From: a virus
Strand: one strand, 5' to 3'
Virus record (IMG/VR): IMGVR_UViG_3300010354_000005
Coordinates: 1 to 56,337 of that record
DNA length: 56,337 nucleotides
Below, in pieces: positions 255 to 50,132 of the stretch. Under the pieces are notes generated by a model. That model was not told where the DNA came from. It ran no database searches and worked only from the letters and a program-made list of their open reading frames with translations. A program made the position numbers and the translations under genes. How positions within the stretch are numbered: position 1 is the first letter of the stretch; each line of letters starts with the position of its first letter.

Positions 255-328
255 TACCCATTGGTGTAATGGCAGCATCCTAGTCTCCAAAACTAATGGT
301 GGGGGTTCAAGTCCCTCATGGGTAGCCA
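255..328 (+). tRNA. tRNA-Trp (anticodon CCA)
   Basis: Acceptor 255-261 pairs with 318-324, the anticodon loop is CTCCAAA (285-291), the T-loop is TTCAAGT (306-312), G325 is the discriminator and CCA is encoded at 326-328. The CCA anticodon reads UGG. The U1-A72 first pair is unusual for tRNA-Trp and more typical of tRNA-Gln. One anticodon-stem pair (C280 x A296) is mismatched. Confidence 0.88.
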
Positions 329-17828: not shown

Positions 17829-18001
17829 GCGATGAATTGCAAATAGAAGTACAACGAGAACTTGAACGGCACTCTAACAAGATTGACCAAATAGAGAAAG
17901 AGTTGTGCAATATAAAGAAGTTGATGTACACAGTCATCGCCGTGTCATTAGGTTCGCCACACATAGGTGCAATTGGAGAAGTACTCAAGCACCTCGTATA
18001 A
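17825..18001 (+). CDS. Small coiled-coil protein (58 aa)
   Basis: Overlaps the endolysin end by ATGA. Residues 1-33 are a charged helix (QRELERHSNKIDQIEKELCN), then a weakly hydrophobic stretch and a GAIGEVLKHLV end. The pattern is reminiscent of XhlA-type lysis accessory proteins, but too short to call. It is the last gene of the lysis block. Confidence 0.68.
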   Translation: MSDELQIEVQRELERHSNKIDQIEKELCNIKKLMYTVIAVSLGSPHIGAIGEVLKHLV

Positions 18002-18012
18002 GGAGTGCCTTT

Positions 18013-18948
18013 ATGCTTAAGGTCAGCGACCAAGAGTTTATATCCGCATGGGACAGACTCAAGAGTGCTGCTAAGGTAGCAAAAGCTTTTGATATGAACG
18101 TCCGATCTGTTTACCGCAGACGGAAGAGTATGGAGGGGAAGATTGATCGACCACTAACCAGTGACGATCCAAGATCCCCCACATTCACTGTTAGGGAGCA
18201 CTCGCCTAGAGTTGATTGCGAGCTTGCTAATGGGGTAATCATTGTGGCATCTGACGCACACTATTGGCCGGGAGTTGAAAGTACCGCGCACAAAGCGTTG
18301 CTGAAAGTTGTTGATGACCTCAAGCCATCCATGATCGTTATGAACGGCGATCTGTTCGATGGTTCCTCTATTAGCAGATTCCCCAAGATGGGATGGGGAA
18401 GAACACCCACAGTGAAAGAAGAACTCCAAGCTGTTGCTGAGCGACTAGCAGAAGTTGAGGCTGTTGCAGGTAACGCTAAGCTCTGGTGGACGATGGGCAA
18501 TCACGACATGCGCTTCGAGGCGCGGTTGGCTCAGGCTGTCCCAGAGTACGAGGGAATCGGGGGCTTCACTCTAAAAGATCATTTCCCCAACTGGAACCAC
18601 AGCATTAGTTTGTTCGTTAATGACAACCTAATGATTAAGCACAGGTTCCGTAACGGGGTACATGCAACGTGGAATAACACGCTCTACAGTGGAGTGTCAA
18701 TGTGTACCGGCCACCTTCATAGGTTGCAAGCCACATTGTTCACGGACTACAAAGGAACTCGCTGGGGCATAGACAGTGGCACCCTAGCCGAGATAGATGG
18801 CGACCACATGCACTACGGTGAGGACAACCCAATGAATCATTGCTCTGGGTTTGCTGTCCTAACAATAGTAGATCATGAGCTTATCTATCCTGAGTTCTGC
18901 TCTGTTCATAACGAGCGCGCGTTCTTCCGGGGCAAGCTTATCGAATAA
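18013..18948 (+). CDS. Calcineurin-like metallophosphoesterase
   Basis: 311 residues from ATG 18013 (AGGAG 8 nt upstream). Residues 10-40 look like a helix-turn-helix (AAKVAKAFDMNVRSVYRRRK). The phosphoesterase core has all metal motifs: SDAHYWPG (D-x-H), NGDLFDG (GDxxD), MGNHDMR (GNHD), a later HRFRNG and CTGHLHR (GHxH). It hydrolyses a phosphoester, perhaps nucleic acid or nucleotide. Its place between the lysis block and virion genes is unusual. Confidence 0.88.
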   Translation: MLKVSDQEFISAWDRLKSAAKVAKAFDMNVRSVYRRRKSMEGKIDRPLTSDDPRSPTFTVREHSPRVDCELANGVIIVASDAHYWPGVESTAHKALLKVVDDLKPSMIVMNGDLFDGSSISRFPKMGWGRTPTVKEELQAVAERLAEVEAVAGNAKLWWTMGNHDMRFEARLAQAVPEYEGIGGFTLKDHFPNWNHSISLFVNDNLMIKHRFRNGVHATWNNTLYSGVSMCTGHLHRLQATLFTDYKGTRWGIDSGTLAEIDGDHMHYGEDNPMNHCSGFAVLTIVDHELIYPEFCSVHNERAFFRGKLIE

Positions 18949-23830: not shown

Positions 23831-26800
23831 ATGGCAACTTCTCCGCTCTATAAGACTTCTGACGAAGCAGGAACCGAATCACGGAGAAAGGGTCAAGCGA
23901 TATCAAGCGGCAAGTACGAACCGGGCGCATTCGCACGTCAAGCAATTGGCACCGAATATGTCCCGGGTCAGTACGCAAGTCAGCAGATTGGTCAAAACTA
24001 CACCCCCGGAGTTGTAGCTGACCAAGCTCTTGCCGCTGGACTCCCTTCCCCTTCCTCACGTCGTCGAGGCATTGCGCCCTCCCCATCAGGCCCCAGCGCC
24101 GCCCCCACGTTTGATCCCCTAAAAGCCTACGAAGAATCGATCCTCAAGGATCAACCCCAATCAGAACTTCGTTCGTCTGCACCAGAAGGAAACTTCCTTG
24201 GTGACTCAGCCAACGATCTAGTCATTGGTGGTTTACAGCTTTATGGTGCTGGCTACGAGATTGCCAACTTGGTATCTGGTGGTGCAATCGATCAAGCCAT
24301 TAAGGATCGCACGGGCAAGACGGGTACGCAAAACTTGGCTGAAGGTCGCCGCATGCTTCAGGCGGATCAGTCTCCTGCGCTGAGAGCCCAACAGAAAGAA
24401 CTGGAAGATGCCAAAGGATTTGTTGACAGCTTTGCAACTGTCCTAACCAACCCACGTCTGGCCGGCTCGTTGACTATGCAGATGGTTCCGCAGCTTGCGA
24501 CTATCGGTATGGCTGCACGGGCTGTGGCTATGAAAACTTTGGCTTGGGGTGCCGAGGCTGGTCTGAGCGCCGAAGCCGCCACTGCTGCTGCATCTACTAA
24601 CGCGGCGCGTACTGTCCTTGGTTTGAACGCTGCGATGGAAGGTGGTATGGCCGGGGCTGATACCCGCAACCACATCCTGAATATGACAGAGGCAGAGCTT
24701 TCGAAGTCTCCTCAGTATCAGGCACTTCTGCGGTCGGGTATGGATCCGATGCTTGCTCGGCAGAAACTAGCCAACGATGCGTCGCTGATCTCTACGGCTC
24801 TGGCAGCTTCGATCTCTGCTGTTGCTTCTAAGGTAACTGGTGCAGCTAAGCTTGAGGCCGCAGTCTTGGGTGGTGTGGTTAACAAGGTTGAGCGCGAGGT
24901 TGGCAAGAAGTCAGGCATGACAATCGCTAAAGAGCTTGGCTTTGCTGGCGTTAAGGAAACCGCAGAGGAAACCCTGCAAGAAGGTGGCGCGCAATTTGCC
25001 CAGAACGTAGCTAAGCAGCAGAAGATCGACGAGCAGCAAGCCTTGATGGAAGGTGTACCCGAGGCCGCTGGTGCTGGTGGTGCTATGGGTCTGCTTGCCG
25101 GTGCTGGATTCGGTGGTGCAAAGGTCGCAATAGAGAAAGGCGCTGAAGCTATCGCCACTCCCCCCGGATCTTCAACTACTGGACAAACATACAGTGGCCC
25201 CGGAGCTGGACGACTCACCGACGTTGAGATGGTGTCAGCCGCACGGTCGCCAGCGTTTATGGCATACCAATGGTCTGTGGCTGATGACGCTACACGAATC
25301 CGTTTACAGAATGCTAACCCCAACCTGAACCTACAAGCTCTGGCACAAGACGTTGATCTTGTTGCTCAGGGTAAGCGGCTGTCTGATTCGGCACCGCAGT
25401 TTGGCCAGACCTTCCTGAACCAATTGGAAGAGTTTGACCTTACAACTGCACAAGCCGCGGCAGACCAGACTCAGCGTATAGCCGGCGCTCCTTCGATGGA
25501 GGGTGTCAAGACTGATGCCGACCGCGCTATGCAGGAAGCTGGCGAAGGGATTGTCTCGACTCCACCCGCTCCGTCCACTGACCAAGAGGCTGATGTTGGC
25601 GGCGATACGGGTGTGCCACAGATTACCGACATGTCGATGGAAGAGCAGATCAACCGTCTGCGTGGCTACAAGCGTCGTGCTCAGAACCTAGAGGGACTGC
25701 CAGAGAACTACCGTCGTCAGCAAGCCGAGCTGTCCGTACAGGAAATGGTGGATCAGGGATTCCCTGAAACCGTAGCCCGTGGCGTGTTCGGCGGCCTACT
25801 GTACGGCCCCAGCCTAGAGACCGTCCTATCAGAAGGAGGCCATACGGCTTCACAGGAGCCCGCTGGTGAGGTCGAAAGCATTGGCGGTACACCCATAGCC
25901 ACCCAGACCACGCTCGTTCAGGAGACCCCGCAGAAGCCCGTTACGGAGGTGTTGACGGAGTTCGGTGACAAGCGCATGTCTGACGGTACGATGACAGACG
26001 ACCAGTTCAGGGATGCTCTTGTCAATTGGGACAACCGCCGCCAAGGCACCGATGGCAAGTCTACCCGCTCCGACTACGAGATCGTCCCCCTGCCAGCCCC
26101 AATGCAAAAGCTGGCCGATGCTCTGGGGATTCAACTCAAGGGTTGGGCATGGAAGGGTGATCCCTACCGTCTGGTCAGCACCCGTCAGGGTATCTCGATG
26201 GGCAAAGGGGTTATTGGTATCAACTTTGGTACCACATCCCAAGGCGGCGAGTTCGTTGTCTTTGGGCATGAGCTGTTCCATGAGCTTGCCAGCCGTGATC
26301 GTCAGGCCGCAGACAACCTTATTGCTGCAATGCAGGACTTCCTTGATGGCGACATCACCGAGGATCTGCGTGAGAAACTGCGTCAGGTTGGCTACAAAGA
26401 GGACATCCTAGCCGAAGAGATTGTTGCCGACGTTCTTGGCGTTCTGTTTGCAGAGCAGTCGTTCTGGAAGAAGATGGCGGAAGTGCAACCCACTCTGCTT
26501 GAGAAGATCATCGACATCATTCGTCAGATGATTAACCGTATGTCCCAATTTGGGACTAGGGAGAAGATGGTTCGCAACGCCATCAAAGATCTTCAGAGAG
26601 TTGAAGATATGATGGTTGGGTTCCTGAACGATGCCATCAACAAGCAAGCCGCTGGTACGTCCGTACAAGACAACATACAACTTAACGCAACTCAAGCAGA
26701 AGCACTACAAAACGTCAGGTCTCTTCTCAAGGAAGGCAAGCGTTCTGAGGCTGCCGCTGCGTTCAAGGCTGCAAACCTGTGGAAAGAAACTGGCCTGAAC

Positions 26801-29800
26801 TTCAATGAGATCGAGACTCAGGAGGTTGCTCCCATTGCGGAGGAGGCCGAAGTCCCGATGCGCCGGCCACAGGAAGAGGTTGATGCTGAGAACGCCTACC
26901 GCGCAATGCTGGAAACAGTTGATCTGCTCCGCGCTGGCAATATTCCAGCAGCAGCTAAGGCTTTCAAAGCTGGCAACCTATCAGCCTTTGGTGAGAACTT
27001 CAATGAGCTTGCAGCGCAGATTGCTTCAGAGCGTAAGAAGCGTGTCAGCGAAGCACAGTTCCAATCTGATGAGCAGAAGCGCCTAACCCTCAAGTCCAAG
27101 CGCTCCATGTTCGACCGACAGATCGAAAGTATTACGTCGGGCGTAACACGTCGCGTTGAGGAGATGATGCAGCAGCGTAAGGATCTGGCTATTGCTGGTG
27201 CCCGTGCGTTCCGCGAGACTCAGACCCAAGAACGCGCCGCCGCCTTGATGGGAGAGGAAAAGCAACGTGGCTTGCTGGCTGACGATACTGGCGGTGTAAT
27301 GACCCAGATGGCAGAGCTTGGCATGTACGGTGGTGCAGAAGCCCAAGCCGAAGCCTCAGAGAAGCGCACCAAAGCAGAAGCCGCCCGTGCCGAATCTGAT
27401 CGTCTGGCAGAAGAGAACGCGACCATCCACAACAACCGCGTCCGTGCATTACTCTACAACGCAGACCGTGGATTGGATCAGCTTGCCAAGGTTCGTCAGG
27501 AGATGGCAGCAGTTGGCTACAGTTCGAATGAGATAGAAGCAGCAGTCGGTAAGTCCGAGGCTGATCTGAAGTCTCTTCGTGATGGTGAGCTGCGCAAATT
27601 GGCAGAAGAACAACTGCGTGACGCTAAGAACATTGGTCAGCGTGAGGTTGTTACCAAGACTGAACCAGAACAGTACCCCGGATTCAATGAGATTCAGGCT
27701 GAGCTTGACCTCAATGATGACCAGAGACGCAATGCACTTGCATTACTTGATGCTGTCGAGCGCAAAGAGATGTCGATGGACGACGCGCTCAAGGCAATCA
27801 AGGTCAACAAGATTGGCCAGATGCAACTGTACGATGCGATGCGTCAGCGCGGTGTTCCTGTACCTAAGGCATGGATCGACATCAGTGGCAACATCGCTGT
27901 CAACTATCCTCTGAATGAGTGGGTCAAAGGATTCCCGAACTCAGCTATGGCTGCGCGTGACGCTTGGTTCCGTGCCGTTGATGCTGTGCCAGAGGGCGTG
28001 ATTGACCTGACCGAAGGCGAGATGGTGTCGTACCGCAACTGGAAGAAGCAAACCACCGAGCTGCGTAAGCGATTGCAAGAAAGGCAAGATCCTTGGGGAG
28101 GTGAGTTCAACTCAATGGAAAATGCCTTCCCCCACGCACTGCCGCTGAACTACACCCTCAACGAGATGCGCAATCCAGACAGCATCCCTGAGGGCGACCG
28201 CCGCCAGATGATTAAGATGGAGTTCGAAGATCCGGTCAGGGCTTGGTTCAAAGATGTTCAGTATATTGAACAATCTCGCCCCGACCTTGGGCCGCAGTTT
28301 GCAAACTTCTTGACAAAAGCAGAACAAGAAGCATACGCCGAGTTCAAGGAGCGTGAGGCCAGCGAGGCTCGTCGTGCTGTCGAAATGAAAACGAAGTCGG
28401 CATTGTATTCTCAGATTGATGGTTTGAGATTTTTGTCTCCAAAGGTTTATACCGACTTCCGTACACAAATTTCTCAGGCAGAAGAGAACCAGCTACCTGC
28501 AATCATGCAAGCTGCGTTCGAGGCTAATGAGTTTGCGGAAATGGCTAAGGCCGGTGGTGCCGAATTTGAAACTATCGGTGAGCTGATGAACCGTCGCGCT
28601 GGCGAGGACGAGGGCTTAGCACAATCCCCAGACCAGATGAGCACCGAGGAAGAACTCGACGATGACGGTAACTACATTGGCTACGACGACAGCATCAGGT
28701 TCAAGCGCGGCACCAACTCCGGTGTCCTGCCAGCCCTGAACACTATCGAGTCTGTGACTGAGATGTTCCGTAATTGGAAAAACGTACCAGCTCACACCGT
28801 AGTGCAAAACCCGAACCAGTTGCCTGATGATGTACGGGCTCGTATCCAATCCAGCTTTGCGGCAAGCGGGTTCAAGGCTGCAACAGATCCCAAGACAGGT
28901 CACATGTACTTATTCAGTGACTTCCTTGATGGTGATACCGATACGCAGTTTGCCGTGTTCAATGAGATCTACGGTCAGTTCGGTGTCCGCGGCTTCATGG
29001 GCGACTCCTTCAAGACGTTCCTTGATAACCAGTACCGCCTGAACCGCAAGACGATCATAGCAGCAGACAAGTTGATCGCGGAGCGCCGTGCTATGGGCAT
29101 CCCGACCACAACTGCCGAGGCTACCTATGCCGTACTTGGCGATACCGCAATACACACTATACACACTAAGTTCGCAAACTGGCTGGACAAGAACGGATTC
29201 CCTGCTGTTGCCGATTGGATAAGATCCTCGACCAACACTGAGGTGTCAAGCATCCTGTCAGGTGTAACTGAAAGTGCTAAGTCAAACGGTATTTCGCCTC
29301 TTGGCGGGCAACCTAACGATAGCATGTCCTTTGATCGCAAGAAAATGCCGGTCGAAGGCTACGCTTACCGCAACGGTCAGATCACCGCATACGCACGGGT
29401 CAACCCGATCACTGGCGATTGGATTGTGTTCACGATCAAGCCGGGTGCCGACTCTATCAACTCGGGTGACTACAACATCACTACTACCGACGACCTTCAG
29501 ATTGCTCACGACATGATGAAGCAACACGGTACTGTGCGCCTAGCCCGTGCCCGCGAGACCCTGCGCTACATCGGCCCCGAGAACATCGAGAAGATCAAGA
29601 CTTGGAATGAGGACGATCCTTCGTGGAAGAAGTTCTACCGCTGGGTTCGTCAAGGTGCTCAGAACAGGTTCCTCCCGATCTGGGAGGTGGCACACCAGAT
29701 GATGATGTCTGGCAAGTCCAACACTGTCATTGATGATCTGGTCAAGTACGAGTCGCGCACTGGTTATTATATTGATAACTACAAGCGTCGTTACATGTAC

Positions 29801-32611
29801 CCGATCATGAAAACCCTGAAGCGTCTTGGTGAGCGCGGGTTGTCAATTGAGGACGTTGATCTGTTCCTGATGGCACGTCACGCAGAAGAGCGTAACTCCA
29901 CCATCTCGGCAATCAATCCTGACAACCGTAAAGGTTCCGGTCTAACTACAAAGGATGCGCAGAAAATCCTCAGTTCTAGGAATAACGGCGCTTGGGATGT
30001 AGCGGCTATGAACGATTTGGAAATCATTGGCCGGCTGATGGATCAGATGTCAACAGATAAACTCAACTATCTGTTGCAGACAGGCATGATCTCGAAGTAC
30101 CAGTACGAGGCGCTGAAGCGGTACAAGCATTACGTCAATCTGTCTGGTAATACCGAGACCGATCTGGATAAGTTCGACACTACTCAGTTGGGCGGTCGCG
30201 CATTCAACGTGCGTGGTACGGACATTATCCGCTCGACAGGCCGCGGCACCGTAGCAGTTGACGTACTTCAAAACACGATGAACTCCTACCTATCGGCAAT
30301 CATCCGTGGCCAGAAGAACCGTCCGTTGCAAGCCATCCTCGATATGTTCGAGCAGAACCCTGACAAGACCTACGTCGAGGTGAATCCGATTGAGACTGTG
30401 CAGCGCGTCAACATCGAGAAGTTCAACTTTGACAACAAGATCCTGAAGATCCTCGGTACCGACAAGGATGATGTGCGGGCTGGCAAGAACTTCTTGGTTG
30501 GTCTGAAGGAGCGCATGAAGCGTGGCGAGATCGATTCGGATGACGCACTGGCTGAGATCGTTCAGCGTATCCGTCAGGCCGAGGAGCGCCGTGCAATCCA
30601 ACCGGATGAAGCTGCCCGTGCCCTGCGCAACCTGAACGAGCAAGTTGTCATGACTGCAAGACTGTCCCCCGATGGCTACGTCAGTATGGTTGAGTTGTCC
30701 GGTCGCCGCGATCCTAACGAGGTAGTGGTCAAGGTCGGTGGCAAGAACATCAGTATGGTATTCAAGAACGGTGGTCTGCCATTCTTCCAATCCATCACTG
30801 GCATGGACATCCAAAGAAGTAATGCTGTCGTAGAGTATATGGCTAAGTGGGCTCAGTTCTTCAGCCAGATGGTCACTACTTGGAACCCAGCTTGGATCCC
30901 GATCAACATGATCCGAGACATACAAACAGCCTACTCGAATATGGCCGCTGACCCAGAAGTCGGGGCTGCTCTCGCTAGTAAGATGACCAAGGCATACGGT
31001 CGAGCTTACAAGATTGCAACCAGACACCTTCTTTACGATTGGGCTAATGTCAAGGATGGCCGGTTCCGCAATATGGTTGACCGTATGCAAACCAAGTATC
31101 CGATGAGTGCCGAAGATGCCAAGCTAATCGAAGAGTTCTTTGAGGATGGTGCCGGCACCTACTTCCTTGACAGGGGTAGCGTTGAGATGTCTCTGCAAAA
31201 TATGCAGAGCGCAATGAACGCCAACAAGGGTGGTGCTACCGGAATGACCTTAGCTGCAATCAAGGAACTCGCCGCCAGCGTGGAACTGGTTGGTATGGCT
31301 GGCGAGATTGCTCCGCGTCTTGCTGCGTACAAGGTTCTGCGCGAAGCCGGTAAGTCCCGCGAAGTTGCCGCACGGTACGCCAAAGAACTGACAGTCAACT
31401 TCAACATGAAGGGAACCAGCAAAGCCTTGCGCGGTATGTATGTGTTCTTCAACCCAGCAGTACAGGGCACGATGCGTATGTTCAAGGATCTCAAAGCTGG
31501 CAACTTGGGACGCTTTGGTACAACCGCTGGTGTCTGGATGGGTCTTGGCTTCTTGTCAACTATGGTTGCTAGAGCCCTCAGCGGAGATGACGAAGATCAT
31601 CCGGGCGTAGACACAATCGATATGGTTGCTGGCTACAAACGCAACACTAGCTTGACTTGGTTGCCGGGAGTTGTCGGCGGCTCGATCCCTGTGGCTTACG
31701 GCTGGAACGTGTTCTCCGCAGCAGGTCAGTACATGTACGATGTGGTGCATGGACACATGCCTTCAGGCGAAGCTGCTCTGAAAGTTATGTCAGCAGCATT
31801 CGACTCGTTCTCGCCAATTGGTTCTGGCGCAGATTCGAAATCTCTGATGGGCATGGGCATCAAGACGATTACACCTAGTATCGCTGTGCCGGCTGCTGAA
31901 TGGCTGATGAACGAGAACAGGTTCGGCGCTCCGATCTACAAGGCGCAAAGTCCTTACTCTGACATCAAAGAGGCGAACGCGTACATGCACTTTGATTCGG
32001 TCAACCCGATCTCGAAGTGGGCTATGCAATCGCTGGTGGAAGTTGGCACCAACAAGAACGCTAGGTACACCCCGGGTCTGGTAGATGTCAATCCCGCAAT
32101 GGTAGACCACATGATTAAGTCGTATGTCCCCGGCCTATTCGCTGAGGCATACAACGCAGCAGGTGTGTCCATCAAAGCAGCAAGGGGAGAAGAGACCAAG
32201 GATATGCCGGTGCCATTCTTAGACCGCTTCAAGGCAAAAGCGGAAGCTGAAGGTTTCGATTCCTCAGCAGTTCGTAACCTCAAGGTTACAATTGACACGA
32301 TGTGGGAATCTTGGAAACAGCCTGACACAACTCCAGAGGAGAAAGCGAAGATGAAGCGCGACTATCCTGAGTTGGCAAAATTGAAAGCTCTGTCTCAAGC
32401 CAATGAGCAAGCAATCAAGTCTGCTCGTCAGTCTGCCGCCAAAATAGAACGCGACCCCAAAGTCTCAGACGAATACAAAGTCGAGGTTCGGAATCGCGTC
32501 AATGACCTTGAGCGTGGCTACAATGCGCGGCTGGTCAAGAAGGCACTGGAAGCTGGGTGGAGAGATACTATTCTTTACGGCGACGGTGAACCTGCTCCTC
32601 CGCCTCGGTAG
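23831..32611 (+). CDS. Giant internal virion protein with HExxH and LPD38-like end
   Basis: 2926 residues, by far the largest gene. The N-terminal 200 residues are disordered; residues 200-450 are Ala-rich helices. Near residue 813 it has VVFGHELFHEL, a zincin HExxH motif; EEIVADV about 45 residues later supplies a possible third ligand, so a zinc metallopeptidase domain is likely. Long coiled coils follow. Near residue 2348, NPAWIPINMIRDIQTAYS, and near 2522, TVNFNMKGTSKALRGM, match the LPD38 polyvalent-protein pattern. Such giants are packaged and ejected. It may remodel cell wall or host proteins on entry. Confidence 0.85.
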   Translation: MATSPLYKTSDEAGTESRRKGQAISSGKYEPGAFARQAIGTEYVPGQYASQQIGQNYTPGVVADQALAAGLPSPSSRRRGIAPSPSGPSAAPTFDPLKAYEESILKDQPQSELRSSAPEGNFLGDSANDLVIGGLQLYGAGYEIANLVSGGAIDQAIKDRTGKTGTQNLAEGRRMLQADQSPALRAQQKELEDAKGFVDSFATVLTNPRLAGSLTMQMVPQLATIGMAARAVAMKTLAWGAEAGLSAEAATAAASTNAARTVLGLNAAMEGGMAGADTRNHILNMTEAELSKSPQYQALLRSGMDPMLARQKLANDASLISTALAASISAVASKVTGAAKLEAAVLGGVVNKVEREVGKKSGMTIAKELGFAGVKETAEETLQEGGAQFAQNVAKQQKIDEQQALMEGVPEAAGAGGAMGLLAGAGFGGAKVAIEKGAEAIATPPGSSTTGQTYSGPGAGRLTDVEMVSAARSPAFMAYQWSVADDATRIRLQNANPNLNLQALAQDVDLVAQGKRLSDSAPQFGQTFLNQLEEFDLTTAQAAADQTQRIAGAPSMEGVKTDADRAMQEAGEGIVSTPPAPSTDQEADVGGDTGVPQITDMSMEEQINRLRGYKRRAQNLEGLPENYRRQQAELSVQEMVDQGFPETVARGVFGGLLYGPSLETVLSEGGHTASQEPAGEVESIGGTPIATQTTLVQETPQKPVTEVLTEFGDKRMSDGTMTDDQFRDALVNWDNRRQGTDGKSTRSDYEIVPLPAPMQKLADALGIQLKGWAWKGDPYRLVSTRQGISMGKGVIGINFGTTSQGGEFVVFGHELFHELASRDRQAADNLIAAMQDFLDGDITEDLREKLRQVGYKEDILAEEIVADVLGVLFAEQSFWKKMAEVQPTLLEKIIDIIRQMINRMSQFGTREKMVRNAIKDLQRVEDMMVGFLNDAINKQAAGTSVQDNIQLNATQAEALQNVRSLLKEGKRSEAAAAFKAANLWKETGLNFNEIETQEVAPIAEEAEVPMRRPQEEVDAENAYRAMLETVDLLRAGNIPAAAKAFKAGNLSAFGENFNELAAQIASERKKRVSEAQFQSDEQKRLTLKSKRSMFDRQIESITSGVTRRVEEMMQQRKDLAIAGARAFRETQTQERAAALMGEEKQRGLLADDTGGVMTQMAELGMYGGAEAQAEASEKRTKAEAARAESDRLAEENATIHNNRVRALLYNADRGLDQLAKVRQEMAAVGYSSNEIEAAVGKSEADLKSLRDGELRKLAEEQLRDAKNIGQREVVTKTEPEQYPGFNEIQAELDLNDDQRRNALALLDAVERKEMSMDDALKAIKVNKIGQMQLYDAMRQRGVPVPKAWIDISGNIAVNYPLNEWVKGFPNSAMAARDAWFRAVDAVPEGVIDLTEGEMVSYRNWKKQTTELRKRLQERQDPWGGEFNSMENAFPHALPLNYTLNEMRNPDSIPEGDRRQMIKMEFEDPVRAWFKDVQYIEQSRPDLGPQFANFLTKAEQEAYAEFKEREASEARRAVEMKTKSALYSQIDGLRFLSPKVYTDFRTQISQAEENQLPAIMQAAFEANEFAEMAKAGGAEFETIGELMNRRAGEDEGLAQSPDQMSTEEELDDDGNYIGYDDSIRFKRGTNSGVLPALNTIESVTEMFRNWKNVPAHTVVQNPNQLPDDVRARIQSSFAASGFKAATDPKTGHMYLFSDFLDGDTDTQFAVFNEIYGQFGVRGFMGDSFKTFLDNQYRLNRKTIIAADKLIAERRAMGIPTTTAEATYAVLGDTAIHTIHTKFANWLDKNGFPAVADWIRSSTNTEVSSILSGVTESAKSNGISPLGGQPNDSMSFDRKKMPVEGYAYRNGQITAYARVNPITGDWIVFTIKPGADSINSGDYNITTTDDLQIAHDMMKQHGTVRLARARETLRYIGPENIEKIKTWNEDDPSWKKFYRWVRQGAQNRFLPIWEVAHQMMMSGKSNTVIDDLVKYESRTGYYIDNYKRRYMYPIMKTLKRLGERGLSIEDVDLFLMARHAEERNSTISAINPDNRKGSGLTTKDAQKILSSRNNGAWDVAAMNDLEIIGRLMDQMSTDKLNYLLQTGMISKYQYEALKRYKHYVNLSGNTETDLDKFDTTQLGGRAFNVRGTDIIRSTGRGTVAVDVLQNTMNSYLSAIIRGQKNRPLQAILDMFEQNPDKTYVEVNPIETVQRVNIEKFNFDNKILKILGTDKDDVRAGKNFLVGLKERMKRGEIDSDDALAEIVQRIRQAEERRAIQPDEAARALRNLNEQVVMTARLSPDGYVSMVELSGRRDPNEVVVKVGGKNISMVFKNGGLPFFQSITGMDIQRSNAVVEYMAKWAQFFSQMVTTWNPAWIPINMIRDIQTAYSNMAADPEVGAALASKMTKAYGRAYKIATRHLLYDWANVKDGRFRNMVDRMQTKYPMSAEDAKLIEEFFEDGAGTYFLDRGSVEMSLQNMQSAMNANKGGATGMTLAAIKELAASVELVGMAGEIAPRLAAYKVLREAGKSREVAARYAKELTVNFNMKGTSKALRGMYVFFNPAVQGTMRMFKDLKAGNLGRFGTTAGVWMGLGFLSTMVARALSGDDEDHPGVDTIDMVAGYKRNTSLTWLPGVVGGSIPVAYGWNVFSAAGQYMYDVVHGHMPSGEAALKVMSAAFDSFSPIGSGADSKSLMGMGIKTITPSIAVPAAEWLMNENRFGAPIYKAQSPYSDIKEANAYMHFDSVNPISKWAMQSLVEVGTNKNARYTPGLVDVNPAMVDHMIKSYVPGLFAEAYNAAGVSIKAARGEETKDMPVPFLDRFKAKAEAEGFDSSAVRNLKVTIDTMWESWKQPDTTPEEKAKMKRDYPELAKLKALSQANEQAIKSARQSAAKIERDPKVSDEYKVEVRNRVNDLERGYNARLVKKALEAGWRDTILYGDGEPAPPPR

Positions 32612-32963: not shown

Positions 32964-33126
32964 TTTTCCCCACTATGATTCCAATTATTTGACTAACAAC
33001 AAAGAGGAAAGCTGCGCAAGCAATTGCCATTGCGAATACTATCCCGGCGAAAGAAAACAAATAAATCAACATCTGAGCTAGAGCTTCCCATAGGACGTGC
33101 TCAAGTTCTGGTGAAAGGTCGGACAT
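32947..33126 (-). CDS. Small membrane protein (59 aa)
   Basis: Starts at ATG 33126, 26 nt inside the end of the gene before it. One long hydrophobic stretch (AQMLIYLFSFAGIVFAMAIA, then ACAAFLFVVSQIIGIIVG) could form two transmembrane helices. No cysteine pair or lipobox. Function unknown. Confidence 0.65.
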   Translation of the reverse strand: MSDLSPELEHVLWEALAQMLIYLFSFAGIVFAMAIACAAFLFVVSQIIGIIVGKNDWDK

Positions 33127-33613
33127 CGCTCTTGCCCCCACTAGGTGTGTTTGGCTTGATGGTGAATACATAGTCTGAATCATCCAGAGCCAATATGTCA
33201 ATACCCATGCCGCAGTTAGAATCATACTGGCATGCGGCCTTCACTGCGTCTACTGCTCCTGCCCCCATCCACATCGCGCCCATAGCGTAGTCCCGCCCAC
33301 AACCCTGTGCGTATTGCGTCTCCTCAATATACATCGGGTACGGTTCCCTCTCGTACTTCTTGACGATGCCACCGGGTGCGATCTCGCACATGTATACCCA
33401 ATCCTCGCTGTCGCGCTGGAACGCCGGCCACTTCTCGGGGTCTTTGCCATTCTCAACCCAATGGAACAAAGCCATACAACGATCAAAGGAACCAGATACT
33501 CCATACAGGCTATCCCCTATCTTTCTGATCTTGGTAACTTCGCGCTTTATCCCACTGCTTGTTGCCTGTCTATCCGCCGCTAGGATCTTTCCATCCCAAA
33601 CGATGATTGTCAT
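33101..33613 (-). CDS. Proteasome-like Ntn hydrolase (170 aa)
   Basis: Begins MTIIVWDGKILAADRQAT, the N-terminal pattern of HslV/proteasome-beta-like proteins found in many phages. After loss of Met, Thr1 would be the nucleophile, and D in the WDG and AADRQ region would support it. It is shorter than 20S beta subunits, and a matching ATPase is not seen in the genome. A small self-standing phage peptidase of unknown target is the likeliest role. Confidence 0.8.
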   Translation of the reverse strand: MTIIVWDGKILAADRQATSSGIKREVTKIRKIGDSLYGVSGSFDRCMALFHWVENGKDPEKWPAFQRDSEDWVYMCEIAPGGIVKKYEREPYPMYIEETQYAQGCGRDYAMGAMWMGAGAVDAVKAACQYDSNCGMGIDILALDDSDYVFTIKPNTPSGGKSDVRPFTRT

Positions 33614-43824: not shown

Positions 43825-44370
43825 CTACACTTCAGTCGATATAGCTACAGAGGTACTACTCTCAGCCATGCGACTCTTCAAACGACGCTCTGCTTTCTTA
43901 CGCTTGTGCGCTGCTCGGATATTCTCCAAAGCTTTGCCCGTGCGCTTCTTGCCATAGTCTGAACGTGTTACTGTTCGTGGACTTAGACGACGCCCAAGTG
44001 AATCATACTGAACATCATCGTCCTCGTCAATGGCTTCTGGGTGTGGATTAGCCGTTGCGGAAACCTTCTCCTCAGCGGGACTTACCTTACGAGGTAAACC
44101 CTTCTTCGTCGCAGCTTTCCTCTTCCGACTCTTCTTTGCAGAAGCCATAATGAATTCCTTCAGTTTGTCCTGAAGTTCTTCGACTAGATCTACCTGCTTG
44201 AACATCCACATCATCTCAGCTTCCGTAGATCTGAAGTTATCTTTTGCTACGGTTGCGGTGCGCTTGAGAAGAGCTACCAACAAGCGCGGATTATGGCAAG
44301 GTATTAGATCATCTGGTGCTTCATTAGATGCTCCGTTGCCAGAGCTAAGCTTTACTAGCATTGTGTTCAT
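43825..44370 (-). CDS. Hypothetical protein with basic region (181 aa)
   Basis: Last gene of the long minus operon. N-terminal acidic/helical part (TEAEMMWMFKQVDLVEELQD), then a nuclear-localisation-like basic stretch (AKKSRKRKAATKKGLPRK) and an acidic middle. The highly basic end suggests nucleic-acid binding. No family is recognised. Confidence 0.68.
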   Translation of the reverse strand: MNTMLVKLSSGNGASNEAPDDLIPCHNPRLLVALLKRTATVAKDNFRSTEAEMMWMFKQVDLVEELQDKLKEFIMASAKKSRKRKAATKKGLPRKVSPAEEKVSATANPHPEAIDEDDDVQYDSLGRRLSPRTVTRSDYGKKRTGKALENIRAAHKRKKAERRLKSRMAESSTSVAISTEV

Positions 44371-44828
44371 GCTACTGCCCTCCCTGTGAACTTAAGTGAT
44401 TGAGCCTTGAAGGTCGGCTCGTTTGGTAGATAGCTTGGTTCGATGTGTCTACCTGCTATCTGCTCAAAGACAATCTTGGTCATCTTCCACATCAGCTTCT
44501 TGTCGATGATGTAGTTACGCCAAGCCATCATGCGACCGTCATTAGTAAAGCCAGAACGACGGCGTATTAGATTGTTGTATTCATCGGCGGTCATCGTGAC
44601 TAAGTGGTTGCTGTAGTCTTGGCGACGGGGGCCGATGATAAGACTGACCATCCGATCAAGAGGGCAATCTTGACTAGCCGACAACGAAACATATTCGCGA
44701 GGCAGGTTATCGATACCCACCCTGAAACAATAGGTGGGCATGACGTTAGACAAGCAGCGGAGTATTACATCCTTCTCCGCCATCTCGCCTATGAACTTAC
44801 TATATAGTCGTGTCATCTTACTGCACAT
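44367..44828 (-). CDS. Hypothetical protein in amidotransferase operon (153 aa)
   Basis: Start ATG 44828 behind AGGAG (9 nt), 11 nt inside the end of the amidotransferase gene. It has CFRVGIDNLPREYVSLSASQ, with later RMMAWRNYIIDKKLMWKMTK. No family is recognised. It travels with the amidotransferase and the amidoligase, so it may be their partner or substrate protein. Confidence 0.65.
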   Translation of the reverse strand: MCSKMTRLYSKFIGEMAEKDVILRCLSNVMPTYCFRVGIDNLPREYVSLSASQDCPLDRMVSLIIGPRRQDYSNHLVTMTADEYNNLIRRRSGFTNDGRMMAWRNYIIDKKLMWKMTKIVFEQIAGRHIEPSYLPNEPTFKAQSLKFTGRAVA

Positions 44829-46101
44829 AGCTGTGTGCTCCTTTCGAAGAGTGAGGTTTAACAATGCCAGCCAACTCAAGCAGAAGATCTTCGTGCTCTG
44901 CCCACATATCAATCACGCAATCTGCACCGTAGTTAGCATCGCTGTTGATACGATCAGACAGAACTTCTGAGTTGAACTGCTTGGATGACTCGTCACCGTA
45001 CATCTCATACAGTAGAGCTGCGCACTTCATTGGGTTCTCACTTACCCAACGAATAACACCGTGATAATCCTCGGTCATCATTGCGTTATAGCTTGAGCGA
45101 ACGATGCGGGCGAGGGCTTCGGTTGATAGTCGGACTTTAGGGTTAATGCGCCGAGAGGCCATCGGTGTATTATCGCGTTTGATACCGGCTTGAACTGCGG
45201 CCTTATTAGCTTTAGCCTTGGCTTTAGCTTTTGCCCGACGTACTCGTTGGCGATTAGCTTGAGCCTTGGCCTTACCATCCCACGGGAGTTGAGCTTGAGC
45301 TGAAGCTGTTGTGGTTTCTTGTTGCTTACGTTCGACCGAAGGAGATCGGTACCCTTCCGCTTCCCACTTTTTGTACTCGCCTTCTTCTTCGAGTTCGTTC
45401 CAGTAACGCCACGAACTGCTGCTGCCGTAGTGGTTCCGCGCTTTGGGAGAGTGGTTGGTTTCTTGGTACCGACTTTTGGTGCTTGGCGACGTGTTCGTCC
45501 CACCTCCATAGTAGTTGTATGAAGGGGCTTGCTCGTATCCGTGCTTCCAAGGAGTCCATGCGTAAGTGTTTGAATACCAGACACCATCGTACTCAACACC
45601 AGCATGCTTGTTGATAATGTAAACATCGCCAGCAGCATTCATGAAGCCGAACTTATTGGACGCGCCAATGTGAACGCCGATGTACCCACGGATGTACGGA
45701 TTCTCAAGAGAGTCGGGGCTTTGCTCAAGCATAGGCTTAAGAAAGTCTTGGATGTAATGCCATGTGTCGGATTTGGTTAGATCCTTAGAGTTGCCACTTG
45801 AGAGAATACCGTTGTGTGCCATCCACAAACCATCTACCACATCGTATGGATGACAGTTGTGCAGATCAATGTCGCCGTGAGTTTTCATGCGGAAGTGGAT
45901 GACAGCTTCATAGCATGCGATCTCTTTGTAGTACAGCTCAGTTACTTCCTTGAGCGAACCGACATGCTTGTAAACTACAACGCCGCGCTCATCACCGTGA
46001 TTGACGATGGCACCGAACCCGTCTGGATTTTTTGCGTAGAAGTCCGTTAACTGTTCTGCCGTGAAGCAGTAATCCTTCGGCTGATGAATGAGAATACACA
46101 T
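44818..46101 (-). CDS. Class II glutamine amidotransferase-like protein (Ntn)
   Basis: 427 residues. Begins MCILIHQ, so Cys1 after Met removal is the Ntn nucleophile. NPDGFGAIVNHGD, HFRMKTHGDIDLHNCHPYDV and MAHNGIL are the amidotransferase class II loops (HxR...G...NxHP, HNG). It would release ammonia from Gln, or cleave gamma-glutamyl bonds, acting with the next-upstream amidoligase. The C-terminal 200 residues are Gln/Ala/Lys/Arg-rich and disordered, unlike usual family members. Good site AAGGA before ATG 46101. Confidence 0.85.
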   Translation of the reverse strand: MCILIHQPKDYCFTAEQLTDFYAKNPDGFGAIVNHGDERGVVVYKHVGSLKEVTELYYKEIACYEAVIHFRMKTHGDIDLHNCHPYDVVDGLWMAHNGILSSGNSKDLTKSDTWHYIQDFLKPMLEQSPDSLENPYIRGYIGVHIGASNKFGFMNAAGDVYIINKHAGVEYDGVWYSNTYAWTPWKHGYEQAPSYNYYGGGTNTSPSTKSRYQETNHSPKARNHYGSSSSWRYWNELEEEGEYKKWEAEGYRSPSVERKQQETTTASAQAQLPWDGKAKAQANRQRVRRAKAKAKAKANKAAVQAGIKRDNTPMASRRINPKVRLSTEALARIVRSSYNAMMTEDYHGVIRWVSENPMKCAALLYEMYGDESSKQFNSEVLSDRINSDANYGADCVIDMWAEHEDLLLELAGIVKPHSSKGAHSYVQ

Positions 46102-46133
46102 AGGTCAATTCCTTTTTGTTAAGTTGGTTGAAG

Positions 46134-47696
46134 TTATGCTGCTGATGCTTGAGGAGTGGTTTGCTCGTTATCATTTCCGCTATCCAATGATAAGTAAGAA
46201 CGCAGGTAACGATTCTCTGCCTTGCGTTCTGGTTGCATGAGCCACTGCTTGAAACCGATTGCTGTAAACTGAGTAAGTGAAACCTCGCCGGGAGTGCAGA
46301 AGGTTAGCAAGGAGTTAACAAACTCTAGGGCTGCCATTACTGATTCGTATCGCAGTGAACCACGGAAAATCCTGAACTCGATTGTCTCTGCATTCGTGAC
46401 GTTCAGGGCCTCGTAACGCTCGGTACTGTGCTTGCCGTGTATGGTGAACTTAGCCATGTGCGGCTTGAAGCGGCAGTAGTTATTGTCATAACGGCGGGCA
46501 ATCGAACGAATCAACGCCTCGTTACGGACATCGTTAAGGAAGGACTGCACACGGTAGATCTGGCCTTGAGTCAGGAACTCACGACCGACGTGGACATGCA
46601 GACCACAGGCACCACCCTCATGAGAACGGAAGCCCATCTTCAACTGAGGATTATTAAGGAACAAAGCTAACCGTTCCCGGTGTACGTCGAGACCTGCTGG
46701 TTGTGTGACCATCTCGAAGCCCTCGCCGATTGAACCGTCGCGCTCGAAGAAGCAGTACTCGCCGGTCTGCTGGGTCTTGTAGTTGACAGCCTCATGGATT
46801 GCCGCCAGCTTCTTATCCAACTGACCAGATCGGATCTGAACCTCAAGCTCGATGCCGAATGCCCTGCGGTTTTGACGGAACCACGGGGAATCTATGATGT
46901 CAAAGCCACGATTGCGAGAGCTGTGATAGCTACCCAACAGATCGCCGTAAGGAGTCCAGTGTTGGTCGCACCAGATACTAAGGCGGTCATTCCATATCAG
47001 ACCAGCAGTACGCCTGTCATCAATGTATGTATTGTTTGCGCGTGTATGAATCTGCACAGCAAACGACGTGAGGATCAGTTGACTACGGTTGTTGTGAATA
47101 CGGGTACCATTCGCTAGTTCTTTCTGCGCACATTCTCCGCAGTAAGTACCCTCCGCAGTGTAGTCTGCGTCATTACCACGCCAGCGGAAAGCCTCACCGT
47201 GTACTTCGTAGTGACCGCAGTGTGCGCGATTGAAGTGATATGTGCCAAGCCAGTTACTAAACCAAGTCTCTTGACTGTGGTTAGCTTGGGCTCGATCAGT
47301 AGATATGAAAGCATTGTGCCACTGATTAGCTATCTTTTGATAAGCTGTGGATGGACGACCGCTTTCAAGGTTCATTGTACCCGGGCCAGCATGGATACCA
47401 AGAGCAAGTATATCCATAGTGAAATGAGAGCGAAGCAGACCGGTCTTGTAGTTCTTGCCAACCTCATCAACAACTCCACGAAGCCACGCTACCATCTGGA
47501 TGCGCTCATCGCTCGTCATATTCTCCATGACGTACTGCAATAGGCAGAACCACTTGTTACGGTGTACGTTGCTACCGTTCGAGCGGCTCATCGAATACAT
47601 ATACTTCTTCATGAAAGCTTTGAAGTACCCTCTATTGTTACGGTAGTCCGTTGCTTTCCTGCGAGTGTAGTCATACAGACTGAACAGTGTGCTCAT
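46134..47696 (-). CDS. Amidoligase (COOH-NH2 ligase, Amidoligase_2 type)
   Basis: 520 residues from ATG 47696, behind AGGTGGCGGAG. About residues 160-195 have a Cys-rich CGHYEVHGEAF...EGTYCGEC zinc-ribbon-like segment. The glutamine-synthetase-like amidoligase core follows: RRAFGIELEVQIRSG, ERDGSIGEGFEMVTQP, CGLHVHVGREFL and ETIEFRIFRGSL, with the conserved Glu, His and Arg residues of the family. It would form an amide from a carboxylate and an amine using ATP. The adjacent amidotransferase makes a two-gene system. Confidence 0.82.
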   Translation of the reverse strand: MSTLFSLYDYTRRKATDYRNNRGYFKAFMKKYMYSMSRSNGSNVHRNKWFCLLQYVMENMTSDERIQMVAWLRGVVDEVGKNYKTGLLRSHFTMDILALGIHAGPGTMNLESGRPSTAYQKIANQWHNAFISTDRAQANHSQETWFSNWLGTYHFNRAHCGHYEVHGEAFRWRGNDADYTAEGTYCGECAQKELANGTRIHNNRSQLILTSFAVQIHTRANNTYIDDRRTAGLIWNDRLSIWCDQHWTPYGDLLGSYHSSRNRGFDIIDSPWFRQNRRAFGIELEVQIRSGQLDKKLAAIHEAVNYKTQQTGEYCFFERDGSIGEGFEMVTQPAGLDVHRERLALFLNNPQLKMGFRSHEGGACGLHVHVGREFLTQGQIYRVQSFLNDVRNEALIRSIARRYDNNYCRFKPHMAKFTIHGKHSTERYEALNVTNAETIEFRIFRGSLRYESVMAALEFVNSLLTFCTPGEVSLTQFTAIGFKQWLMQPERKAENRYLRSYLSLDSGNDNEQTTPQASAA

Positions 47697-48033
47697 CTCC
47701 GCCACCTTTCTTCTCCTTAGGGAATGGAACTTTAGTAAAACTACCAACTGAATCGATCTTCTTGTTGAACTTCTCATCAAGTTTACGAACTCGGTTGGCA
47801 GTCAAGGATGTATTGCATTGCAGCTCATTAAGAAGCTCGTGGTTATCCCAGCACTCGATGTCATCGTAGTCTGCTTCCCATGTGCCTCCATTGGTATGAA
47901 TCTCACCGATGCAAGAATAGTCACTGTCATAAACCACATCCCAACTAAACTCACGGCGCATAAAATCTATAACCTTCTGCGCAATGTGTCCGTTGCCGGG
48001 ACGAAATGCCCTCAGCCAAACTCTATCAGTCAT
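47671..48033 (-). CDS. Hypothetical protein (120 aa)
   Basis: Overlaps the amidoligase start by 26 nt, so it is likely translationally coupled to it. The middle (EIHTNGGTWEADYDDIECWD, NHELLNELQCNTSLTANRVR) is mixed alpha/beta. The tail is basic (KKEKKGGGDE region). No known family; a partner or small regulator is possible. Confidence 0.65.
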   Translation of the reverse strand: MTDRVWLRAFRPGNGHIAQKVIDFMRREFSWDVVYDSDYSCIGEIHTNGGTWEADYDDIECWDNHELLNELQCNTSLTANRVRKLDEKFNKKIDSVGSFTKVPFPKEKKGGGDEHTVQSV

Positions 48034-48412
48034 CGCTGTCTCCTTTTTGGTGCTTCTCTAGTTCATCATGAATACGATCCATGCCTACGTCAACGGTGTC
48101 GCTTATCTTCTCGCACCATTGCATTGCTTCTGCAATGTCCTCGTCACTGAAGTTAGCCAGCTTGAATATGAGTGTCGCACCGCCGGCTGATACCGCAGCG
48201 AACTGCATGCCAACGGGTGCGCGAACGTGTTCTGGTGCCCTGCGTGTGCCAATTGAGATGAGCTTGGCCGCATGTGAAACACCAGATAAGTAGCGAACTA
48301 TCTCAGTGAATGTCTCGCCTTTGATGGCCCTCAAGTTATCGAAGTACTCTTGCAAGCTACTCTCGATATACTTTTTGTTGTCCTCAATTGCTTTCTTGAT
48401 TGGATCAGTCAT
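48026..48412 (-). CDS. Hypothetical protein (128 aa)
   Basis: Helical and acidic (EDNKKYIESSLQEYFDNLRA), with a small domain in the middle and a SDEDIAEAMQWCEKISDTVD helix. No family is recognised. It overlaps its neighbours by a few bases. Confidence 0.65.
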   Translation of the reverse strand: MTDPIKKAIEDNKKYIESSLQEYFDNLRAIKGETFTEIVRYLSGVSHAAKLISIGTRRAPEHVRAPVGMQFAAVSAGGATLIFKLANFSDEDIAEAMQWCEKISDTVDVGMDRIHDELEKHQKGDSDD

Positions 48413-49065: not shown

Positions 49066-49377
49066 TTAGTTATGAACATAAGGTAGATCTTTTAACTTCT
49101 CCATGCACTGCGAGAAGTATGTCATGTAGAGCACCTCACCACAGTGACCTAGCGTGACACTCAACTTGCAGACATGCCCCTCAGGTAGATCCCCTCGGAG
49201 TACATGACCGTGTGAGTCAACCGGTATCTCCGTTTGTCCCACCTGAATTGAAGCCCCCTGACTGCACATTGCTTCCTTTGTTTCTTGGAGACTTCCTGCT
49301 TCTGCGTTCCTTACTAGCAGATGCACCGCTAACAGGGCAAGCAGAAGGTATATGCAAAGACGGTACCATAGCGACAT
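49066..49377 (-). CDS. Secreted cysteine-containing protein (103 aa)
   Basis: Start ATG 49377 behind GGAGGGAATCAAG. A classical signal peptide (LCIYLLLALLAVHLLVRNAE-A) is followed by a mature domain with four cysteines (CSQG, HVCKLS, HCGEV, QCMEK), likely disulfide-linked in the periplasm. It shares the HxCKxS pattern with the 50134 gene, so the two are probably relatives. It overlaps the upstream membrane-protein gene by 161 nt. Confidence 0.65.
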   Translation of the reverse strand: MSLWYRLCIYLLLALLAVHLLVRNAEAGSLQETKEAMCSQGASIQVGQTEIPVDSHGHVLRGDLPEGHVCKLSVTLGHCGEVLYMTYFSQCMEKLKDLPYVHN

Positions 49378-49582
49378 CTTGATTCCCTCCATCAAACTCT
49401 CGCTCCTTGATCTCATCTCTGATATAGATATAGATCGGGATGCTAGAGTACATCAAAGAAGCGAAGAAGGCGTATACATCAGGCACCCTCAACGCACCCA
49501 TAATTACCCATGCCATACCAAATGTCAACAGTATGACAAAGACGGTAAACGTAGATACAAGCAAGTTCATTAGTCTATTCAT
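49217..49582 (-). CDS. Two-helix membrane protein (121 aa)
   Basis: Two hydrophobic segments (LMNLLVSTFTVFVILLTFG, then AFFASLMYSSIPIYIYIR) and a long polar, glycine-rich tail (residues 80-120). The tail overlaps the next gene in another frame, an arrangement like Rz/Rz1. Start ATG 49582 is coupled to the previous stop. Function unknown. Confidence 0.6.
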   Translation of the reverse strand: MNRLMNLLVSTFTVFVILLTFGMAWVIMGALRVPDVYAFFASLMYSSIPIYIYIRDEIKEREFDGGNQDVAMVPSLHIPSACPVSGASASKERRSRKSPRNKGSNVQSGGFNSGGTNGDTG

Positions 49583-49583
49583 A

Positions 49584-50132
49584 TCACCACCATGAGTCGT
49601 AGAATATTGCATTATCTTTAACATCTTTGCTGGCTTTCAGTAGGAACGAGTCAAGACTTTCAAGATCCTCAGGATAGATTGTCTCTGCTCCGAAGAAGAA
49701 TCCGCTCCGTGGTTTGAGCTGATCCTTGTCCCTAGCGTTGGCTAAGTCTGCAATGTCCTCAGCAAACAACCTTACTGTTGCACAATTGAAAACTTCAGCA
49801 CCGCCGGCACCTGTACGTTCTCGCCACAGATCTTCCATCCATCCATGAAGAGCATTGAACTTGCGCCAGTAGTGGTACTGTGAATCTATACAGCCACTCT
49901 CATGTGCAAGTTTGTCTGCCTTCATCAAAGAACTCCAATAGGCTTCACGATCATTAGTTGTCATCAATGAAAGCTCTGCGTCACTCTTGTCAGTAAAGCC
50001 AGAGAAGTATCTTGCTGCTCTCCGAGCTGGGAAATTATATGCAGTAACATCACCTACTGGATCATCCAAGTGCCTAACGTACTTCTCTACAACTGGTAGT
50101 GGTACTTTATATGCGTACATATCGAGACCCAC
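49584..50132 (-). CDS. Hypothetical phage protein MGLDMYAY family (182 aa)
   Basis: Begins MGLDMYAYKV, a start I recognise from a common uncharacterised phage family (GLDMYLxxK). It has a FSGFTDKSDAELSLMTTN segment and a helical middle with YHYWRKFNALHGWMEDLW. Cytoplasmic. Function unknown. Confidence 0.72.
   Translation of the reverse strand: MGLDMYAYKVPLPVVEKYVRHLDDPVGDVTAYNFPARRAARYFSGFTDKSDAELSLMTTNDREAYWSSLMKADKLAHESGCIDSQYHYWRKFNALHGWMEDLWRERTGAGGAEVFNCATVRLFAEDIADLANARDKDQLKPRSGFFFGAETIYPEDLESLDSFLLKASKDVKDNAIFYDSWW

What the first reader, a model, noticed from the sequence alone, without database searches (positions are those of the whole stretch)
44818..47696. Amidoligase plus class II glutamine amidotransferase: a predicted peptide-bond-forming system
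Two adjacent minus-strand genes encode an Amidoligase_2-like COOH-NH2 ligase (FGIELEV, GLHVHVG, FRIFRGSL) and a Cys1 Ntn glutamine amidotransferase (MCILIHQ, HNGIL). Established knowledge: phage amidoligases are predicted to be genomically linked with class II amidotransferases, and together could make novel amides or isopeptide links or modify cell-wall peptides. Here the amidotransferase has an unusual 200-residue Gln/Ala/Lys/Arg-rich tail. Flanking genes 47671-48033 and 44367-44828 overlap the pair and may be its partner or substrate. The pair ends an operon of many small envelope proteins, so an envelope target is possible.
Basis: partly seen in the sequence, partly recalled or inferred. 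Interest (0 to 1): 0.85.

Follow-up and report, generated by a model that had tools for sequence, protein, structure and literature searches.

The report
Phage amidoligase–glutamine amidotransferase gene pair
Two neighbouring genes of an uncultivated tailed phage encode an ATP-dependent amide-bond-forming enzyme and a partner that probably splits ammonia off glutamine; the two are inherited as a fixed pair in many unrelated phages, a pairing already published, but nobody knows what they modify.

Summary
The gene at 46134-47696 encodes a glutamine-synthetase-fold amidoligase (Pfam Amidoligase_2, 22.4 bits against a cut-off of 22; predicted fold matches glutamine synthetase, YbdK, glutamate-cysteine ligase and PafA, Z 9-11). 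The gene at 44818-46101 encodes a class II, Cys1 Ntn-fold glutaminase-like protein (GlmS Z 10.9, EgtC Z 10.8). Their catalytic residues are invariant in 59 non-redundant relatives. Ligase then glutaminase, same strand, median gap 30 bp, is the order in every locus whose contig runs far enough. The two diverge together (Mantel r 0.87) and are under purifying selection.

The pairing is not new: it is published for OM43, LUZ24-like and Marvin phages. What I add: almost every ligase carries a zinc-ribbon-like motif before the catalytic core; no third gene is universal, so the flanking genes are poor candidates for a dedicated substrate; and chromosomal amidoligases of the same Pfam family sit beside an unrelated class I (C26) gamma-glutamyl-hydrolase-like protein instead.

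Best reading: a self-contained, glutamine-fed amidation module in a non-structural gene block. The acceptor is unknown; an envelope target is a guess. A gamma-glutamyl ligase/hydrolase cycle is a serious rival.

The parts
46134..47696 (-). Amidoligase (LIG), 520 aa: N-terminal helical domain (about 1-152), zinc-ribbon-like region (C160, H162, C186, C189), GS/GCS-fold ligase core (about 271-503)
46188..46886 (-). Approximate ligase core (residues about 271-503) holding E283, E285, D320, E328, H367, H369, E440 and R442
47130..47219 (-). Zinc-ribbon-like CGH...CxxC motif (residues 160-189)
44818..46101 (-). Class II (Ntn) glutamine amidotransferase-like protein (GAT), 427 aa
45532..46101 (-). GAT catalytic domain (residues 1-190): C2, R71, T74, H75, H96, N97, G98, D112
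45124..45339 (-). Q/A/K/R-rich low-confidence linker of GAT (residues 255-326)
44863..45123 (-). C-terminal helical segment of GAT (residues 327-413), present in close relatives, degraded or absent in distant ones
47671..48033 (-). Upstream overlapping gene, 120 aa, unknown; homologues in 9 of 59 representatives (window included)
48026..48412 (-). Second upstream gene, 128 aa, unknown; homologues in 18 of 59 representatives (window included)
44367..44828 (-). Downstream overlapping gene, 153 aa, unknown; homologues in 3 of 59 representatives (window included), fast-evolving

Best explanation
A two-protein, glutamine-dependent amidation enzyme. GAT uses its N-terminal Cys (Cys2, after removal of Met1) to hydrolyse glutamine to glutamate and ammonia. 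LIG, a GS/GCS-fold ligase, phosphorylates a carboxylate on an acceptor with ATP, and ammonia from GAT converts it to an amide. The net reaction is acceptor-COOH + Gln + ATP -> acceptor-CONH2 + Glu + ADP + Pi. Shown here: both folds (by prediction), intact active sites, fixed ligase-then-glutaminase gene order, co-divergence and purifying selection. Inferred: that the two proteins form a complex, that ammonia passes between them, and that the module acts early in infection (its gene block is separate from the structural genes; homologous pairs lie beside replication genes; the glutamine amidotransferase of phage SU10 is listed among early products). Not known: the acceptor. Candidates are peptidoglycan stem-peptide carboxylates, a host or phage protein, or a small molecule.
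For: Folds: LIG model mean pLDDT 82.6, with glutamine synthetase, YbdK, GCL and PafA at Z 9-11 over 170-225 residues; GAT model residues 1-190 match GlmS (Z 10.9), EgtC (10.8) and PurF (10.2). Residues: GAT C2, R71, T74, H75, H96, N97, G98 and D112 are 59/59; LIG E283 and E285 58/58, D320, E328, H367, E440 and R442 59/59. Linkage: 160 of 165 loci hold both genes; in the five others the contig ends where the partner would be. In the set, found by the ligase alone, every locus with enough contig has GAT directly downstream. In 59 non-redundant representatives the strand is the same and the median gap is 30 bp. Mantel r 0.87, 0 of 2000 permutations reach it; dN/dS against L001 about 0.25 (LIG) and 0.10 (GAT). 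Self-containment: no third gene is universal. Early position: pair at gp06-07 just before primase, helicase and polymerase in MEP402 and near the start of MW202733; GAT, ATP-grasp and YtfP-like proteins listed as early products in phage SU10 (PMC4281155).
Against: From my own knowledge, no characterised GS-fold ligase takes ammonia from a glutaminase partner; the known GS-fold plus GAT-like pairs (PuuA/PuuD, EgtA/EgtC) make and cut gamma-glutamyl amides. EgtC ties with GlmS as structural match to GAT. Chromosomal amidoligases of the same Pfam family sit next to Peptidase C26, a gamma-glutamyl-hydrolase-type protein (19 of 23 loci). No complex could be modelled here, so no ammonia channel was tested. 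dS values are near saturation, so the dN/dS ratios are rough.
Confidence: 0.5

Rival explanations
1. A gamma-glutamyl cycle or tag. LIG joins a glutamate (or another carboxylate) to an amine, as in EgtA, PuuA or PafA, and GAT removes the gamma-glutamyl group again, as in EgtC. GAT would then be a hydrolase, not an ammonia donor.
For: GAT matches EgtC (Z 10.8) as well as GlmS (Z 10.9). LIG matches glutamate-cysteine ligase, YbdK and PafA/Dop as well as GS. In Proteobacterial chromosomes, 19 of 23 PF12224 loci have a Peptidase C26 / class I GAT neighbour and none of these has the class II protein, so two unrelated gamma-glutamyl-amide-cleaving folds partner the same ligase family.
Against: A ligase and a hydrolase with no conserved enzyme between them would be a futile cycle unless timing or specificity differs; no third gene is universal. 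C26 relatives can also serve as amidotransferases.
Confidence: 0.25
2. Cell-wall or envelope modification for superinfection exclusion: the pair amidates a carboxylate of peptidoglycan or another surface molecule so that competing phages adsorb or lyse poorly. This names a target, and is compatible with the best explanation.
For: Suggested in the literature for phiEco32 and repeated for OM43 phages (PMC10580990) and C. clostridioforme prophages (PMC11318856). Several genes further upstream in the block are membrane or secreted proteins.
Against: Those membrane genes are not conserved with the pair. Neither LIG nor GAT has a strongly hydrophobic segment (maximum KD19 1.13 and 0.85). I found no experiment that tested the idea.
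Confidence: 0.25
3. A phage counter-defence or defence module rather than a biosynthetic one.
For: One neighbour among the 48 scanned matches the Antirestrict (PF03230) family; the pair is an accessory cassette in very different phages.
Against: No PADLOC match for LIG, GAT or the flanking genes; anti-restriction neighbours are not recurrent.
Confidence: 0.1

Closest known systems
Amidoligase-GATase pair of OM43 phages MEP401/MEP402 and the Manatee Spring podovirus MW202733
   Same: Same two genes, same order, adjacent; 28-39% (LIG) and 34-38% (GAT) identity
   Different: Different phage groups; GAT tails differ
Mycobacteriophage Marvin group, gp108-gp109 in MosMoris
   Same: Amidoligase then GAT, adjacent, same strand
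   Different: 27% identity over the core only; both genes annotated 'glutamine amidotransferase domain'
phiEco32/SU10-, LUZ24- and StenR_269-type amidoligase cassettes
   Same: Amidoligase and class II GAT in the early or non-structural region
   Different: These add ATP-grasp ligases, a second GS/COOH-NH2 ligase or gamma-glutamyl-cyclotransferase-like genes; here only the two-gene core is present
Chromosomal Amidoligase_2 with Peptidase C26 in Proteobacteria
   Same: Same ligase family (PF12224) beside a gamma-glutamyl-amide-acting partner
   Different: The partner has the unrelated class I (C26) fold; no class II protein
EgtA/EgtC and PuuA/PuuD
   Same: GS/GCS-fold ligase with a gamma-glutamyl hydrolase (pathway roles from my own knowledge)
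   Different: Small-molecule pathways with further enzymes; sequence similarity of the phage proteins to them is very low

Membership tests
Amidoligase_2 (PF12224) | Profile match above the curated cut-off | tested here: met
   22.4 bits against 22, E 1.3e-4: marginal; supported by phrog_2443 'amidoligase enzyme' 2.3e-10
Amidoligase_2 (PF12224) | GS/GCS-superfamily fold with conserved ExE, Glu, His and Arg residues | tested here: met
   Z 9-11 to GS, YbdK, GCL, PafA; residues conserved in 58-59 of 59
Amidoligase_2 (PF12224) | ATP-dependent amide ligase activity | not testable with these tools
   needs biochemistry
Class II glutamine amidotransferase | Pfam/NCBIfam match above the cut-off | tested here: not met
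   GATase_4 21.5 bits against 23; GlmS models far below their cut-offs. A curation threshold, not a biochemical feature; the fold and residue tests below are met
Class II glutamine amidotransferase | Ntn fold of the GlmS/PurF type | tested here: met
   GlmS Z 10.9, EgtC 10.8, PurF 10.2 over 166-184 residues
Class II glutamine amidotransferase | N-terminal Cys nucleophile plus gamma-glutamyl-binding Arg, Thr-His, Asn-Gly, Asp | tested here: met
   C2, R71, T74, H75, N97, G98, D112 in 59/59; profile alignment to GlmS 1xff. The same residues would fit EgtC-type hydrolases
Class II glutamine amidotransferase | Glutaminase activity coupled to a synthase | not testable with these tools
   no complex model and no biochemistry
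phiEco32-type amidoligase cassette | Amidoligase plus class II GAT | tested here: met
phiEco32-type amidoligase cassette | Additional ATP-grasp ligase and GGCT-like gene in the cassette | tested here: not met
   No credible Pfam match other than LIG and GAT among the genes tested between 43825 and 50132; genes elsewhere in the window were not all scanned with Pfam
Pup ligase/depupylase system | Pup-like tag encoded nearby | tested here: inconclusive
   Fold is shared with PafA/Dop; no conserved small third gene, but a non-adjacent tag was not searched for
EgtA/EgtC-like gamma-glutamyl cycle | Ligase makes, and GAT-fold protein cuts, a gamma-glutamyl amide | not testable with these tools
   EgtC ties with GlmS in fold comparison

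The most novel reading that the evidence does not exclude
The phage pair is a reversible gamma-glutamyl or amino-acid tagging system acting on a host molecule: the GS-fold ligase attaches, the Ntn protein removes. Phages would have paired the ligase with an Ntn protein where bacteria pair the same family with an unrelated C26 hydrolase, so two folds were recruited independently for one role.
Probability: 0.15. Interest if true: 0.75.

Novelty: new member of a known kind. Interest (0 to 1): 0.42.

Why it matters
Phage amidoligase-GAT pairs have been noted and given predicted functions in the literature, but I found no functional test of them in the papers held here. The obligate two-gene form, with no other conserved gene, is the minimal unit for such a test: two proteins, candidate assays and clear catalytic mutants. 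The contrast with the C26-partnered chromosomal amidoligases turns the question 'ammonia donor or gamma-glutamyl hydrolase?' into something that can be settled in vitro.

Tried and rejected
Flanking genes as dedicated substrate or partner: rejected, because they are not conserved with the pair; a collection scan for 47671 relatives found none, although the fetched loci do hold some, so that scan is insensitive. Defence-system membership: no PADLOC match. Sequence search of solved structures: nothing for the LIG profile, weak GlmS and amidophosphoribosyltransferase hits for the GAT profile. Conserved third enzyme by clustering neighbours: none; Pfam on 48 representative neighbours gave scattered single hits, including RecT, YqaJ, Antirestrict and a weak R2K ATP-grasp. 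Megablast of the region against phage records: no match. The Iyer 2009 and Marvin papers are not held, so their content is cited only through other papers or from my own knowledge. A complex of the two proteins could not be modelled with the tools on hand.

Full report
What is there. The window is a 56,337-base virus record, a tailed phage with podovirus-type genes (terminase, head-tail adaptor, major head protein, internal virion proteins, a 2926-aa giant protein). The structural genes run on the plus strand; the pair lies near the end of a minus-strand block of small genes (about 55086 down to 43825). LIG (46134-47696) and GAT (44818-46101) are separated by 32 bases.

Are the enzyme calls right? 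Sequence profiles are marginal: LIG 22.4 bits against a cut-off of 22 for Amidoligase_2, GAT 21.5 bits against 23 for GATase_4, with firmer PHROG matches (phrog_16683 1.1e-30 and phrog_2443 'amidoligase enzyme' 2.3e-10 for LIG, phrog_25883 4.5e-7 for GAT). The structure predictions decide it. The LIG model (mean pLDDT 82.6) has a GS/GCS core matching glutamine synthetases, YbdK, plant glutamate-cysteine ligase and PafA at Z 9-11, with Dop and PafA also in the Foldseek list. The GAT catalytic domain (residues 1-190; whole-model mean pLDDT 64.8) matches GlmS (Z 10.9), EgtC (10.8) and PurF (10.2).

Are the active sites intact? In 59 non-redundant relatives (below 90% GAT identity, window included) the GAT nucleophile C2 and R71, T74, H75, H96, N97, G98 and D112 are present in all. 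In LIG, E283 and E285 (58/58) and D320, E328, H367, E440 and R442 (59/59) are invariant. Assigning these to metal, ATP and gamma-glutamyl binding rests on established knowledge of GS and class II amidotransferases; one search aligns the GAT profile to GlmS through the HxR..THG and HNG motifs. Against the closest relative, dN/dS is about 0.25 for LIG and 0.10 for GAT, with synonymous sites near saturation.

How tight is the link? 160 of 165 fetched loci contain both genes; in the other five the contig ends where the partner should be. Several contigs were fetched twice, so the fair count is the 59 representatives: always ligase then GAT, same strand, median gap 30 bp. The set found with the ligase alone has GAT directly downstream wherever the contig allows, so the link is not an artefact of searching with GAT. 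Core distances of the two proteins correlate at r 0.87 (0 of 2000 permutations); part of that reflects shared phage ancestry. Pairs also occur in contigs assigned to Polynucleobacter, Azoarcus, Candidimonas and other bacteria, next to each other in an Acinetobacter phage (by annotation) and in Marvin-group mycobacteriophages. The rule is not universal for the ligase family: a Clostridioides phage amidoligase is followed by an RlaP-family gene, not a GAT.

New anatomy. A zinc-ribbon-like motif (CxH or CxxC, then CxxC) lies upstream of the ligase core in 57 of 59 representatives by a loose pattern. In the window it is C160, H162, C186 and C189. Its role is unknown; substrate recognition or GAT docking would be guesses. 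The GAT tail is a Q/A/K/R-rich linker (255-326) followed by a helical segment (327-413) kept in close relatives only.

No third gene. Counting the window, homologues of 48026 occur in 18 of 59 representatives, 47671 in 9, 43825 in 7 and 44367 in 3; clustering all neighbours found no other universal family. Around this pair I found none of the ATP-grasp or gamma-glutamyl-cyclotransferase-like genes seen in StenR_269 and reported for SU10 and UFV-P2.

A comparison that matters. In 398 genomes of the phylum of a Polynucleobacter genome carrying the pair, 24 have Amidoligase_2. Of 23 loci with a scorable ligase, 19 have a Peptidase C26 (class I amidotransferase-fold) gene alongside, and only the Polynucleobacter locus has the class II GAT. 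No C26 gene was found in the phage loci. So the same ligase family is partnered by either of two unrelated folds that act on gamma-glutamyl amides. Both partners may supply ammonia, or both may be hydrolases; sequence cannot say which.

Mechanism. I favour glutamine-dependent amidation (0.5): it is self-contained, whereas a ligase-hydrolase cycle without intermediate enzymes would be futile. The rival (0.25) has the precedents: from my own knowledge, characterised pairs of GS-fold ligases with GAT-like proteins are gamma-glutamyl pathways (PuuA/PuuD, EgtA/EgtC). The target is open. Cell-wall modification and superinfection exclusion are published suggestions (PMC10580990; PMC11318856), not results.

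Novelty. The pairing is published: OM43 phages (PMC10580990), LUZ24-like UFV-P2 (PMC3890496), and Marvin and phiEco32 as cited there. This is a new member of a known kind, with a clearer definition of its minimal form.

Noticed in passing
window 33101-33613 (-): HslV/proteasome-beta-like Ntn peptidase (phrog_1040 5.8e-32; TIGR03634 2.8e-5); homologues lie near the primase gene in L003 and L006. A second Ntn-fold protein in the same phage.
   Followed up: partly
window 23831-32611 (+): 2926-aa giant protein: N-terminal part resembles phrog_2206 'virion RNA polymerase', C-terminal part phrog_14770, phrog_616 and DarB-like antirestriction families.
   Followed up: no
window 17905-18948 (+): Metallophosphoesterase (phrog_221, 1.2e-24) inside the structural gene block.
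   Followed up: no
window 49066-49416 and 49217-49624 (-): Two overlapping ORFs in different frames, both with strongly hydrophobic N-termini and both with homologues in relatives.
   Followed up: no
window 98-172 and 255-328 (+): tRNA-Met(CAT) and tRNA-Trp(CCA) at the left end.
   Followed up: no
L065 8822-9595 and four related loci: A gene that looks like an R2K-type ATP-grasp ligase lies a few genes downstream of the pair in 5 loci; the Pfam R2K_3 hit among the scanned neighbours is weak (0.0088) and was not tied to this gene.
   Followed up: partly
L176-L194: Chromosomal Amidoligase_2 genes sit beside Peptidase C26 in 19 of 23 Proteobacterial loci: a conserved bacterial two-gene module.
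   Followed up: partly
L169 3668-5857: Clostridioides phage AR1086-1 amidoligase is followed by an RlaP (RNA repair nucleotidyltransferase) gene instead of a GAT.
   Followed up: no
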